This document shows, piece by piece, positions 21,382 to 27,381 of a stretch of 64,000 nt of DNA (within the stretch, counting starts at the first letter, position 1; each line of letters begins with the position of its first letter). The notes beneath the pieces are model-generated. The model saw only the letters and a program-made list of their open reading frames with translations, had not been told where the DNA came from and made no database searches. A program made the translations under genes and the position numbers. The DNA comes from Candidatus Cryosericum septentrionale (GTDB taxonomy: Bacteria > Caldisericota > Caldisericia > Cryosericales > Cryosericaceae). The stretch covers positions 62,001-126,000 of the forward strand of contig NZ_QXIY01000030.1 in the NCBI RefSeq assembly GCF_003570995.1, in the 5' to 3' direction.

Positions 21382-22941
21382 ATGGCACAGTTTACAATGC
21401 TGGACGGCGCCACCACTATTGGCGGCACCAAGCTTCTGTTCGAGGCGAGCACGTCTCCCAATACGACGCGTCTGCTGTTCGATTTTGGGCTCAGCTACAC
21501 CACCATGGGCGCATACTTCGAGGAATTCCTTACGCCGCGCACATCGGCGGGTCTCACGGACTACCTGACGACAGGGCTGCTGCCAAAGCTGCGATTCTAC
21601 CGTTCCGACCTCACGGCGCTCCTTCAGGAGATGCAGCCTGAACTGGCCAGACAACTGGCGGACCCTGGTCACATCGACGCCTGCTTCATTACACACGCGC
21701 ATGTCGATCACACTGGTTCGATCTCGTTTCTGGACGAGATCATCCCGCTGTATGCCACCCCGGTGACAGCAGCCATACTGAGCGCTGTCGAAGAAAGCCA
21801 GTTCAGTGCTGGACCAGAAAACAGCGTCACGGATTTCATCCTGCGCCCCAACCTAGGCTCCAACAAACACGGCCAGCGAACGCTGCATGAGCTTACTGCA
21901 CCCGTCACGTTTCCTGATTGCCGTGTGACGGCGTACCCTGTAGACCACAGTATCCCCGGAGCCTGCGCATATCTCATCGAATATGATGGCGGTACTGTCG
22001 TCTATACCGGCGATCTGCGGTTCCACGGCCGTATGGGGCATGTCACCCGTGAGACCATCACGGCACTCGCTGGCCTCCATCCGGACACCGTCATCATAGA
22101 AGGAACGAATCTTCGGCCCGATCATCAGGAAGAACCGATGGAGCCAGCATTCCGGCGCCGTTGTGCCTTCTGGTCGGAACAAGAAGTAGAGCAGAAGGCG
22201 CTGGAAGAAGCGACAAAGGCGACAGGCCTCATCCTGGCCGACTTTGGCATGAAAGACCTGGACCGCCTCATGACCTTTCAGCGTGTCGCACGTGCTACCG
22301 GCCGCAACCTGGGGATCGTTCCGCGGGACGCATTCATCGTGCAGCGGGCGCAACAGGCCGGCTACCCGACCATCGACCTGAACGATCCATCAGTCGTGCT
22401 CTATGTCAAGCGCGGCGGCAGCGGCATGTATGACAAGGGTGATATCAAACAGGACTGGGCGCGCAGCCCCCTCCTACGCTTTGCAGGGACGGATCCCGAT
22501 TCCCTGGATGCCCAGGGACGTCGGGATGCTGTTGAGGACGTCCTGAACGGTTCCTGCCCACGCATCGTCCGTGCAGCAGAGGTCTCAGCTCATCAGTCAG
22601 CGTACCTTCTCTCGCTGGGATACTGGGATATCCAGGAACTGTGTGATCTGCGCCCCGGGCCTGGTTCATTGTATATTCACTCCTCCGCCGAGGCGTTCAA
22701 TGAGGAGATGCATTGGAGTCAGGAACGCCTCGCCCGCTGGCTGAACCTTGCAGGAATGGATTCCATTCACATCCATGCATCCGGGCATGCACCCCAGGAG
22801 GATCTGTTCCGGATCGTCGAAGAGCTTGCTTCCACCCATGTCTATCCCATTCATACGGAACATCCGGAACGATATGTTGAGCAATTCGGGAGCTTGGCGA
22901 CGCTTCTTGCTAACGGCCAGATAGCCCAGCTCCACAATTGA
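21382..22941 (+). CDS. RNase J-like metallo-beta-lactamase nuclease
   Basis: A 519-residue MBL/beta-CASP nuclease. The metal site is THAHVDHTGSI (H-x-H-x-D-H, about residues 105-115). A further Asp lies in VYTGDLRFHG. The beta-CASP domain (about 250-400) includes FGMKDLDRL. The C-terminal RMMBL motif is IHASGHAPQEDL, with HASGH typical of RNase J. The N-terminus is longer and less canonical than that of housekeeping RNase J, so this may be a paralog processing a limited set of RNAs. SD AAGGAGG precedes the ATG. Its last seven codons form the left copy of the 21-nt repeat that flanks the thiamine cassette. Confidence 0.8.
   Translation: MAQFTMLDGATTIGGTKLLFEASTSPNTTRLLFDFGLSYTTMGAYFEEFLTPRTSAGLTDYLTTGLLPKLRFYRSDLTALLQEMQPELARQLADPGHIDACFITHAHVDHTGSISFLDEIIPLYATPVTAAILSAVEESQFSAGPENSVTDFILRPNLGSNKHGQRTLHELTAPVTFPDCRVTAYPVDHSIPGACAYLIEYDGGTVVYTGDLRFHGRMGHVTRETITALAGLHPDTVIIEGTNLRPDHQEEPMEPAFRRRCAFWSEQEVEQKALEEATKATGLILADFGMKDLDRLMTFQRVARATGRNLGIVPRDAFIVQRAQQAGYPTIDLNDPSVVLYVKRGGSGMYDKGDIKQDWARSPLLRFAGTDPDSLDAQGRRDAVEDVLNGSCPRIVRAAEVSAHQSAYLLSLGYWDIQELCDLRPGPGSLYIHSSAEAFNEEMHWSQERLARWLNLAGMDSIHIHASGHAPQEDLFRIVEELASTHVYPIHTEHPERYVEQFGSLATLLANGQIAQLHN
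22921..22941 (+). repeat. Left direct repeat flanking the thiamine cassette
   Basis: This is the 3' end of the RNase J-like gene including its TGA. It begins ATAGCCCAGC and ends CCACAATTGA. It matches 27361-27381 at 20 of 21 positions. The single difference changes a Leu codon to a Val codon when both are read in the gene's frame. Confidence 0.75.
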
Positions 22942-22971
22942 GCTTTGACTAGAGGCTCATCACGGGAGCAA

Positions 22972-22999
22972 TTGATATCATGGTGTAACGTGATACTAT
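22972..22999 (+). promoter_or_regulatory. Promoter of the thiamine operon
   Basis: TTGATA (22972-22977), a 16-nt spacer and TACTAT (22994-22999). The predicted start near 23006 places the TPP aptamer at the very 5' end of the transcript. Confidence 0.55.
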
Positions 23000-23010
23000 G
23001 AAATAGTAAA

Positions 23011-23144
23011 GCAATTGCGGGGGAACTCTTCGGAGTTGAGAAGGTTAAAACCTGACCCTTTGAACCTGTCAGTTCACACTGTCGTAGGGAAGCGAATTAA
23101 CGTGATAAAAGGCATCCGCTGAACTCGGCGGATGCCGTTTTGTT
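23011..23144 (+). ncRNA. TPP riboswitch with downstream intrinsic terminator
   Basis: The thi-box core is clear: GGAGTTGAGA, then ACCCTTTGAACCTG, then CGTAGGGAAGCG. The aptamer spans about 23011-23095. An expression platform follows: GGCATCCGC (23111-23119) pairs with GCGGATGCC (23128-23136), and GTTTTGTT comes next. TPP binding should favour the terminator and switch off thiD-cytX-thiM-thiE-HAD. The AAGGAG site for thiD lies directly after the terminator. Confidence 0.92.
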
Positions 23145-23160
23145 ATATAAGGAGACAACC

Positions 23161-26016: not shown

Positions 26017-26653
26017 GATCGATTACAACCTCTATCTTGTAACAGACCGCGATCTGATGAGCACGCCGACGCTGGAACAGGCAGTCGAACGAGCAATAGA
26101 AGGCGGGAGCACACTCATCCAGCTGCGGGAGAAAACAGCCTCCTCGCTGGAGTTTTATCAAATGGCGGTAACCATCAAACGACTGACCGACAGCCATCAT
26201 ATTCCGCTGATCATCAACGACCGGGTCGACATAGCCCTGGCGGTCGACACCGCTGGTGTACATATCGGGCAAAGTGATCTGCCAGCCGGGATCGTCCGCC
26301 AGATCATCGGGAACAGCAAGATCCTTGGCGTTTCCGTCTCTTCTGTAGCCGAAGCCGTGAAGGCGAAAAAGGATGGCGCGGATTATCTTGGCGTCGGTGC
26401 CATGTTCGCCACAGGGACAAAAACCGATGCTGAACTAGTGACAATAAACGAATTAAGGGACATAAGATCCGCCGTATCTTTGCCGATCGTTGTCATCGGC
26501 GGGATCAACCTCACGACCATACCGTCCTTCGCGAACACGGGGATCGATGGGATCGCTGTCGTTTCCGCGCTGATTGCCGCGAAGGACATTACCGAGGCGG
26601 CAAAACAGTTAAGAGCATCGTTTTCGCGGACAAAAGGAGAGGAGGATGCTTGA
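26006..26653 (+). CDS. thiE: Thiamine-phosphate synthase
   Basis: A 215-residue TIM-barrel enzyme that joins HMP-PP and thiazole phosphate to thiamine phosphate. Motifs are LYLVTDRDL, IQLREKTAS (pyrophosphate-binding Arg and Lys), LIINDRVDIAL, GVHIGQSDLP, DYLGVGAMFATGTK and VVIGGIN. The length is standard. It overlaps thiM and the following HAD gene, so the operon is compact. With ThiD and ThiM it completes salvage to thiamine phosphate. Confidence 0.93.
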   Translation: MKPEIDYNLYLVTDRDLMSTPTLEQAVERAIEGGSTLIQLREKTASSLEFYQMAVTIKRLTDSHHIPLIINDRVDIALAVDTAGVHIGQSDLPAGIVRQIIGNSKILGVSVSSVAEAVKAKKDGADYLGVGAMFATGTKTDAELVTINELRDIRSAVSLPIVVIGGINLTTIPSFANTGIDGIAVVSALIAAKDITEAAKQLRASFSRTKGEEDA

Positions 26654-27290
26654 TTTTAAAGCGGCGATCTTTGACTTGGACGGGACACTGATCGATTCCA
26701 TGGGGGTATGGGAGGATATCGACATTGATTTTCTGGCAAAACGCCATTTATTCGTACCGGAGGGATATATCAGTGAAATTTCCGCAAAGAGTTTTAAAGA
26801 AGCTGCAGAATATACGATCGCCCTCTTTGGCCTAAAAGAGAGGGCAGAAGATATCATCGAAGAATGGAACCGGATGGCCATTGACGAATACAGTCATCAT
26901 GTCCCGTTAAAACCTTATGCAAAAGAATATCTCCTCTTTTTAAAGGGACAGGGGATCAAACTTGGCGTAGCTACCGCGCTGCCAAAGGTACTTTATGAGC
27001 CTGTATTGAAAAACAATGGCATTTACACCTTGTTCGACGCGTTTGCTTCCACTGATGAAGTTGTCCACTGGAAAGGAAGCCCTGATATTTATCTGTTGGC
27101 AGCCAAAAAATTGGGTGTTCCCTCTTGTGACTGCGTTGCCTTTGAAGATGTACTGGCCGGTATTCAGGGGATTGTATTGGCGAGCATGCAAGCGTATGGC
27201 GTATATGACAAATATTCAAGTCATGAGCAAGTGCAGATTCAAGAATTGTCAAAAAGGTATATTCATAGCTTTGCGGAAGTGCTTCCATAA
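26646..27290 (+). CDS. HAD-superfamily hydrolase, likely phosphatase of the thiamine cassette
   Basis: A 214-residue HAD subfamily IA protein. Motif I is FDLDGTLIDS with the nucleophile Asp, motif II is the Thr in GVATALPK, motif III is the Lys in WKGSPDIYL, and motif IV is AFEDVLAGIQG. The last position in the operon suggests a thiamine-phosphate phosphatase, but a general sugar-phosphate or nucleotide phosphatase is also possible. The gene is the most AT-rich in the window: two hand-counted 60-base stretches are 35-37% G+C, against 60% in a dnaE stretch. This supports foreign origin. Confidence 0.8.
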   Translation: MLDFKAAIFDLDGTLIDSMGVWEDIDIDFLAKRHLFVPEGYISEISAKSFKEAAEYTIALFGLKERAEDIIEEWNRMAIDEYSHHVPLKPYAKEYLLFLKGQGIKLGVATALPKVLYEPVLKNNGIYTLFDAFASTDEVVHWKGSPDIYLLAAKKLGVPSCDCVAFEDVLAGIQGIVLASMQAYGVYDKYSSHEQVQIQELSKRYIHSFAEVLP

Positions 27291-27302
27291 CAGCGCCTCC
27301 AG

Positions 27303-27328
27303 AGCCGTTCAGAAATCGGCTGGCCTTT
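27303..27328 (+). terminator. Terminator of the thiamine operon
   Basis: AGCCG (27303-27307) pairs with CGGCT (27317-27321), followed by GGCCTTTT. The stem is short but it lies 12 nt after the HAD stop. Confidence 0.5.
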
Positions 27329-27360
27329 TACGCCAACCGATGTGCATAGGCATTGAGGGA

Positions 27361-27381
27361 ATAGCCCAGGTCCACAATTGA
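27361..27381 (+). repeat. Right direct repeat flanking the thiamine cassette
   Basis: It begins ATAGCCCAGG and ends CCACAATTGA. It is the second copy of the 3' end of the RNase J-like gene (22921-22941), here with no gene in front of it. It includes the in-frame TGA, as expected for a displaced original gene end. Confidence 0.75.

What the first reader, a model, noticed from the sequence alone, without database searches (positions are those of the whole stretch)
22921..27381. Thiamine-salvage cassette inserted into the 3' end of an RNase J-like gene
Seen: a 21-nt direct repeat (20 of 21 identical) brackets the whole riboswitch-thiD-cytX-thiM-thiE-HAD block. The left copy is exactly the last seven codons and stop of the upstream gene, and the right copy is the same words with Val for Leu and no gene in front. 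The block is visibly richer in A+T (35-37% G+C in two counted 60-base rows of the HAD gene, 60% in a dnaE row). Inference: the block integrated at the end of a protein-coding gene and restored that end, as islands do at tRNA genes. No integrase lies inside, so it would have been moved in trans or has lost its enzyme.
Basis: partly seen in the sequence, partly recalled or inferred. Interest (0 to 1): 0.75.

Follow-up and report, generated by a model that had tools for sequence, protein, structure and literature searches.

The report
Clostridial thiamine-salvage operon behind RNase-J-like gene
In three of fifteen Cryosericum genomes a vitamin-B1 salvage operon, most likely acquired from Clostridia, sits behind an RNase-J-like gene between two similar copies of the last 21 letters of that gene, and it is predicted to pass between species by ordinary homologous gene exchange rather than by an enzyme of its own.

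Summary
A 21-nt word (20/21) brackets a TPP-riboswitch–thiD–cytX–thiM–thiE–HAD operon and is found nowhere else in the genome within 3 mismatches. Three of 15 Cryosericum genomes carry the operon, at the same place with both copies. ThiM was not found in the other 12; in nine of these the locus itself was read. The nearest hits bearing an organism name are Clostridia/Bacillota. The genes are intact, with dN/dS 0.09–0.42.

'Island restoring a gene end' is only partly supported. The right copy sits where non-carriers have their gene end. But the word was found in no non-carrier, so the predicted empty site was not seen. Carriers also share a distinct ~105-nt gene tail (88–95% among carriers, 49–63% to nine non-carriers) and 19 nt after the right copy, and the same tail plus operon is joined to two different upstream alleles. 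One non-carrier that groups with carriers has a different allele. This looks like homologous allele exchange; the 21-nt duplication would be an older insertion footprint of unknown mechanism.

Predicted function: HMP and thiazole salvage to TMP. The genus shows ThiN but no ThiL above cut-off, so HAD likely dephosphorylates TMP. Ordinary in kind, with an instructive history.

The parts
21382..22941 (+). RNase-J-like gene (MBL fold plus RMMBL domain), 519 aa, intact
   Evidence: below the curated RNase J cut-offs of NCBIfam
22837..22941 (+). carrier-specific gene tail (105 nt incl. stop), shared by the three carriers, unlike that of nine non-carriers
   Evidence: 88-95% among carriers, 49-63% to non-carriers
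22921..22941 (+). left copy of the 21-nt direct repeat = last six codons plus stop of the gene
22972..22999 (+). promoter-like site TTGATA-16-TACTAT ahead of the riboswitch
   Evidence: 3 such sites found, 3.9 expected in shuffles; weak alone
23009..23108 (+). TPP riboswitch aptamer (RF00059)
   Evidence: 61.8 bits against gathering 54.3
23111..23136 (+). terminator-like hairpin, probable expression platform of the riboswitch
   Evidence: z -5.45
23161..23967 (+). thiD, HMP/HMP-P kinase
   Evidence: TIGR00097 360 bits, cut-off 205
23960..25174 (+). cytX, putative HMP transporter; start overlaps thiD stop
   Evidence: TIGR02358 357 bits, cut-off 310
25198..26016 (+). thiM, hydroxyethylthiazole kinase
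   Evidence: TIGR00694 287 bits, cut-off 256
26006..26653 (+). thiE, thiamine phosphate synthase; overlaps thiM
   Evidence: TIGR00693 212 bits, cut-off 145
26646..27290 (+). HAD-IA phosphatase, predicted TMP phosphatase; overlaps thiE; 43.8% G+C
   Evidence: substrate inferred
27315..27341 (+). hairpin after HAD (ATCGGCTGGC/GCCAACCGAT), no T run
   Evidence: 70-nt fold z -1.96
27361..27381 (+). right copy of the 21-nt repeat, at the place of the gene end in non-carriers
27382..27400 (+). carrier-specific 19-nt stretch with small terminator-like hairpin (27379-27393); the sequence shared with most non-carriers begins at 27401

Best explanation
A complete TPP-riboswitch-type thiamine-salvage operon, most likely of Clostridial origin, sits between an intact RNase-J-like gene and the sequence that follows that gene in most relatives, and it probably reached its present distribution by homologous exchange of the gene tail, operon and following 19 nt between Cryosericum lineages. 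Shown: position, the two repeat copies in three species, no ThiM found elsewhere in the genus, intact genes, and a carrier-specific gene tail joined to two different upstream alleles. Inferred: the 21-nt duplication is the footprint of an older insertion at the end of an allele of this type, by site-specific recombination or by a staggered break and repair. From then on the operon would travel by double crossover, on the left in or near the conserved HVYPIHTEH-coding stretch (about 22,840) and on the right in the conserved TGGCGATTTCCTCACA stretch (27,401 onward). Predicted function: CytX imports HMP. ThiD and ThiM phosphorylate HMP and thiazole, and ThiE joins them to TMP. HAD removes the phosphate because the genus shows ThiN but no ThiL above cut-off, and native ThiN makes TPP. 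The riboswitch would shut the operon off when TPP is plentiful.
For: Carriers 3 of 15 genus genomes by ThiM, same site and both copies, all five genes open in all three. Nine non-carrier loci read, none with the operon. Gene tail from HVYP to stop: 88-95% among carriers, 49-63% to nine non-carriers; the 300 nt before it: window 73-77% to all 11 others including the two carriers, L003 86-89% to G004/G013/G012. So one tail plus operon is joined to two alleles. G002 groups with L003 and L002 in the six-gene flank tree (100/100), but its RNase-J-like gene is 73% to the window and 77% to L002 while its recF and dnaN are 94% to both. Origin: nearest organism-named ThiM and HAD hits are one Acetanaerobacterium MAG (75% and 78%, both with longest contig 19,115 bp), for CytX a Clostridia MAG (66%); same-phylum ThiMs outside the genus are 32-51% in eight genomes, plus one marginal hit. 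dN/dS 0.09-0.42 for the five genes. ThiC 0 of 15 and ThiL 0 of 15 above cut-off, ThiN 10 of 15; a second TPP riboswitch precedes a gene that I recognise as ThiT-like by recall.
Against: No donor lineage with this allele and no intermediate was found. Crossover places are read from identity steps, not from a formal breakpoint test. A single vertical insertion with later allele swaps upstream would look much the same. The tail of G014, the most distant species, is as far from the other non-carriers (49-61%) as the carrier tail is, so a fast-evolving tail is not excluded. dS of thiD, cytX and thiM (0.13-0.23) is within the flank range (0.11-0.40); only thiE, and HAD between window and L002 (0.05-0.09), fall below it. 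In the mtnP tree G002 falls outside the carriers. The genus genomes are 61-97% complete, so absences outside the nine loci may be gaps. ThiL absence rests on a strict cut-off: weaker ThiL hits occur in 7 of 15, and only 9 of 14 control genomes pass it. HAD's substrate is untested, and its nearest solved relatives are sugar-phosphate and pseudouridine phosphatases and beta-phosphoglucomutases.
Confidence: 0.58

Rival explanations
1. CIME-like genomic island: the operon was integrated at the 3' end of the gene by a tyrosine recombinase acting between 21-nt att cores, restoring the gene end; the integrase acted in trans or was lost.
For: Direct repeat of 21 nt ending exactly at the stop codon, insertion at a gene 3' end, no recombination genes inside, displaced copy at the place of the gene end. 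Repeats of 8-60 bp and element-borne replacement gene ends are described for such elements (PMC5704250 and PMC10111431, passages).
Against: The word was found in none of 12 non-carrier genomes, so it is not a conserved attB. No other place with this word in the own genome. No precise empty allele seen. The carrier-specific tail extends 84 nt beyond the repeat and is not repeated on the right. PF00589 recombinase hits: G001 and G007 have one each, like most of the genus; the window genome has two further ones, on another contig, C38.
Confidence: 0.2
2. One vertical insertion in the common ancestor of the three carriers and G002, with the 21 nt duplicated by staggered break and end joining; later allele swaps changed the upstream gene in some lineages and erased the operon in G002.
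For: Single site, both copies in all three carriers; operon divergence near that of the flanks; G002 has a different allele.
Against: Needs an allele swap that stops just before the tail; thiE (both pairs) and HAD (window to L002) have lower dS (0.05-0.09) than all four flank genes measured (0.11-0.40).
Confidence: 0.2
3. The repeat is chance and the operon is an ancestral Cryosericum operon lost in most species.
For: Some phylum members outside the genus have ThiM: 9 of 39 at E<=0.001, one of them marginal.
Against: 20 of 21 matches against 12-16 in resampled sequence, the repeat kept in three species, ThiM 32-51% to eight of those nine but 65-80% to most of the 120 listed database hits.
Confidence: 0.02

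Closest known systems
Thiamine-salvage operons of Clostridia/Bacillota (thiD, cytX, thiM, thiE with HAD)
   Different: Here it is in Candidatus Cryosericum behind an RNase-J-like gene, between 21-nt repeats; gene order and riboswitch in the donors could not be read
cis-mobilizable elements (CIMEs), described beside ICEs/IMEs at the 3' ends of rpmG, rpsI, fda and rplL in Streptococcus salivarius (PMC7563491, passages)
   Same: Cargo without recombination genes between att-like direct repeats at the 3' end of a protein gene
   Different: No parent ICE/IME with the same site found, no conserved attB, no precise excision product seen
Prophage-type integration in icd with replacement sequence (PMC10111431, passages)
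   Same: A new gene tail stays with the insert and the gene remains open
   Different: There the identity block can extend to about 250 bp; here only 21 of 105 nt of the tail are repeated and no integrase is present
Staphylococcus aureus tenA-thiM-thiD-thiE plus TPK pathway without ThiL (PMC2766623, passages)
   Same: TMP proposed to be dephosphorylated before a pyrophosphokinase makes TPP
   Different: There a GTPase-like phosphatase on the TPK transcript was studied; here a HAD phosphatase lies in the thi operon

Membership tests
TPP riboswitch RF00059 | covariance-model score over gathering threshold | tested here: met
   61.8 against 54.3 bits
TPP riboswitch RF00059 | expression platform ahead of the regulated gene | tested here: met
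   terminator-like hairpin 23111-23136, fold z -5.45; switching itself not testable
thiamine-salvage operon | ThiD, ThiM, ThiE and HMP transporter over curated cut-offs | tested here: met
   all four over cut-off
TMP phosphatase (HAD) | HAD-IA family | tested here: met
   TIGR01509 42.6 against 29.4; Pfam PF00702, PF13419
TMP phosphatase (HAD) | activity on TMP | not testable with these tools
   context only: ThiN 10 of 15, ThiL 0 of 15 above cut-off
CIME / genomic island | flanking att-like direct repeats | tested here: met
   21 nt, 20 of 21
CIME / genomic island | no recombination or transfer genes inside | tested here: met
   ORFs and families of the block
CIME / genomic island | empty attB with one copy of the repeat in relatives | tested here: not met
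   word in 0 of 12 non-carrier genomes; nine loci read
CIME / genomic island | related ICE/IME with the same att site | tested here: inconclusive
   no further copy of the word in the own genome or at other loci of the two other carriers; genomes incomplete
CIME / genomic island | excision or circular form | not testable with these tools
   no reads available
RNase J (curated) | NCBIfam RNase J cut-offs | tested here: not met
   49.6 against 820 and 45.6 against 400 bits; Lactamase_B_2 and RMMBL met, so RNase-J-like only

The most novel reading that the evidence does not exclude
The 3' end of this RNase-J-like gene is a swappable slot. Gene tail plus whatever lies behind it (nothing, a 158-bp inverted-repeat element with a second allele end in G004, or a whole vitamin operon) is exchanged as one unit between Cryosericum species by crossovers in conserved flanks, so that metabolic operons travel without any mobility enzyme.
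Probability: 0.3. Interest if true: 0.55.

Novelty: new member of a known kind. Interest (0 to 1): 0.36.

Why it matters
It is a clear case of a whole vitamin-salvage pathway, with its own RNA switch, being added to a genus that appears to depend on imported thiamine (a ThiT-like gene and ThiN; no ThiC or ThiL above cut-off), and of a gene tail moving with it. It warns that a direct repeat at a gene end is not by itself proof of an integrase-driven island: tail and flank alleles must be compared first. It also offers a testable HAD phosphatase for the step from TMP to thiamine.

Tried and rejected
Viral contigs: a scan with the window's ThiM alone, which reaches close relatives only, gave no encoded relative. 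Plasmids: 201 records with ThiM relatives, all under 60% identity. Own-genome search of the word found no third copy. Two further tyrosine-recombinase hits on G000:C38 were not linked to the site; regions L083 and L084, and the ThiN region L085, were fetched but not analysed. ThiL-like hits are weak and below cut-off. The idea that G004 is a second insertion of the same type was dropped: its two gene ends are of different allele types without a 21-nt repeat. HAD against solved structures gave no TMP phosphatase. In one search the DegP query was in a wrong frame and found nothing, so the downstream sequence was read directly there; one search repeated it with the right frame (found in 10 of 12 loci). 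One search printed the wrong end for minus-strand loci and was replaced. Literature: Cryosericum appears in 8 papers of the held library, seen only as a listing with abstract starts. Searches for a TMP phosphatase and for cytX/riboswitch transfer listed no title that names this locus; that is a statement about these listings only. Passages of PMC5613172 (the word phosphatase does not occur) and PMC3410848 were seen and are not used as evidence.
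Full report
Observation. The two copies of the 21-nt word are at 22921-22941 and 27361-27381 and differ at one base. They are the only places within 3 mismatches in the 2.1-Mb genome, and resampled sequence gives best matches of 12-16 of 21. The left copy is six sense codons plus the stop of a 519-aa MBL-fold/RMMBL protein. It is RNase-J-like only, as the curated RNase J cut-offs are not met. 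Between the copies lie a TPP riboswitch with a strong terminator-like hairpin and five genes, thiD, cytX, thiM, thiE and a HAD-IA phosphatase. Each neighbouring pair overlaps except cytX-thiM. Only HAD is clearly A+T-rich, at 43.8% G+C.

Who carries it. The window lies in contig C24 of genome G000. Its relatives L002 and L003 are Candidatus Cryosericum odellii SMC5 and C. hinesii SMC3; by contig coordinates they are G007 and G001. ThiM is found in 3 of 15 genus genomes, these three, and all five genes are open in each. The operon is at the same place in all three. L002 has both copies, with 4 differences between them. L003's right copy has lost one base and differs at three more positions. Nine further genomes could be read at the locus (G002, G004, G005, G009, G010, G011, G012, G013, G014), none with the operon. 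In six of them (G002, G005, G009, G010, G012, G013) 15-16 nt separate the stop from a stretch like TGGCGATTTCC. G011 has a diverged form of that stretch. G014 is too diverged there to align by eye. G004 has a 158-bp element with 16-nt inverted ends after its stop, then a second allele end, then the common stretch. In G003, G006 and G008 only weak, paralogue-like hits were found. The word, up to 3 mismatches, occurs in none of the 12 genomes without ThiM.

What the loci without the operon show. After the right copy the window has 19 nt before TGGCGATTTCC, against 15-16 nt after the stop in those six. The right copy therefore stands where a gene end belongs. But no non-carrier has the carrier-type end. 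The carriers share a gene tail of 105 nt (from the HVYP motif to the stop) at 88-95% identity, and this tail is 49-63% identical to the nine non-carriers. Eight of those nine are 57-85% among themselves; the ninth, G014, is 49-61% to the rest, so distance alone does not prove a foreign tail. The stronger sign is the contrast with the sequence just upstream. There the 300 nt of the window's gene are 73-77% to every other allele, L002 and L003 included, while L002 and L003 are 81-89% to G004, G012 and G013 (sliding tables). So one tail-plus-operon unit is attached to two different alleles of the same gene. Downstream, the 19 nt after the right copy are carrier-specific, and the common sequence returns at 27,401.

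History. A tree of six flank genes for eight loci groups window, L003, L002 and G002 (100/100), puts G002 with L003 and L002 (100/100) and beside L002 (88/92). The six single-gene trees vary: mtnP puts G002 outside the three carriers; the rhomboid-like gene puts it beside L002 plus L003, with the window elsewhere. G002's RNase-J-like gene is 73% to the window and 77% to L002, although its recF and dnaN are 94% to both. The simplest reading is that G002 lost, or never received, the operon together with the carrier allele, by replacement of the whole allele, not by precise excision. Synonymous divergence of operon genes (0.05-0.23) lies within or below that of four flank genes (0.11-0.40; the RNase-J-like gene 0.96-1.03), and dN/dS is 0.09-0.42 without stops. 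This fits an operon kept by selection and not newly arrived.

Origin. In 5.8 billion proteins the first six ThiM hits (93-96%) fall with the carriers. Nearly all the others listed are 65-80% identical, and those that bear an organism name are Clostridia or other Bacillota, the nearest an Acetanaerobacterium MAG at 75%. HAD has the same MAG at 78% as its nearest organism-named hit, CytX a Clostridia MAG at 66%. A 69-row ThiM tree places the carriers inside this group and away from five same-phylum ThiMs (a quick tree, weakly supported root with long outgroup branches; 61 of the 120 listed hits were used). Of 54 phylum genomes 12 have a ThiM match: the three carriers, eight others at 32-51% identity, and one marginal. 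Equal longest-contig lengths for ThiM and HAD hits (19,115; 10,841; 20,727; 3,029 bp and more), for CytX and ThiM (11,134 bp) and for CytX, ThiM and HAD (11,805 bp) suggest that the operon existed as a unit before the transfer; I could not open those contigs.

Function. In the genus ThiC is above cut-off in 0 of 15 genomes and ThiL in 0 of 15; ThiN is above it in 10 of 15. Weaker ThiL hits occur in 7 of 15, and the ThiL cut-off is passed by only 9 of 14 control genomes, so its absence is likely, not proven. The window genome has a second TPP riboswitch ahead of a gene that I recognise as ThiT-like by recall, not by a family search. Import and pyrophosphorylation of thiamine thus look native. 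The operon would add salvage from HMP and thiazole. ThiE yields TMP, and without ThiL this must lose its phosphate before ThiN can act; the same logic is stated for S. aureus (PMC2766623, passages). HAD, whose start overlaps the end of thiE, is the natural candidate. Its activity is untested.

Mechanism of arrival. The repeat is real and needs an explanation. Site-specific integration at a gene end fits its length and its end at the stop codon (repeats of 8-60 bp: PMC5704250; replacement sequences: PMC10111431; CIMEs: PMC7563491; passages seen). Against it stand the lack of a conserved target word, of a single-copy empty allele, of a recombinase in the block and of any sister island marked by the word. 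Staggered break and repair would also give a 21-nt duplication. I take the duplication as an old footprint and homologous exchange as the later mover; the second part has direct support in the tail/allele mosaic, the first has not.

Noticed in passing
window 21740-22840: The window's RNase-J-like gene is a divergent allele here (57-87% per 60-nt bin to the two other carriers) while these two are 82-98% alike; whole-gene identity to other species is also lower than for its neighbours.
   Followed up: partly
L052 (G004:C19:109605-109762): A 158-bp element with 16-nt terminal inverted repeats lies between two different allele ends of the same gene; the end sequence (up to 1 mismatch) occurs in 8 of 15 genus genomes.
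   Followed up: partly
L082 (G000:C12:52999-53101, minus strand): Second TPP riboswitch, ahead of a ThiT-like membrane protein and an EamA-like transporter (names by recall); BLAST found only 8-9-nt words in common between the cassette's aptamer and this one.
   Followed up: partly
L083/L084 (G000:C38:2690 and 39179): Two tyrosine-recombinase hits beyond the one that most of the genus has, on one 44.6-kb contig; possible integrated element.
   Followed up: no
L003 about 16150-16290: The N-terminal part of the DegP-like protease after the operon varies in length between species (36 nt longer in L003 than in the window).
   Followed up: no
window 22929-22969: The left copy plus the following 28 nt folds into a nested hairpin (GCTCC...GGAGC; the 90-nt fold has z -3.89); the left copies keep GCTCC in three of three carriers, the right copies in none.
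   Followed up: partly
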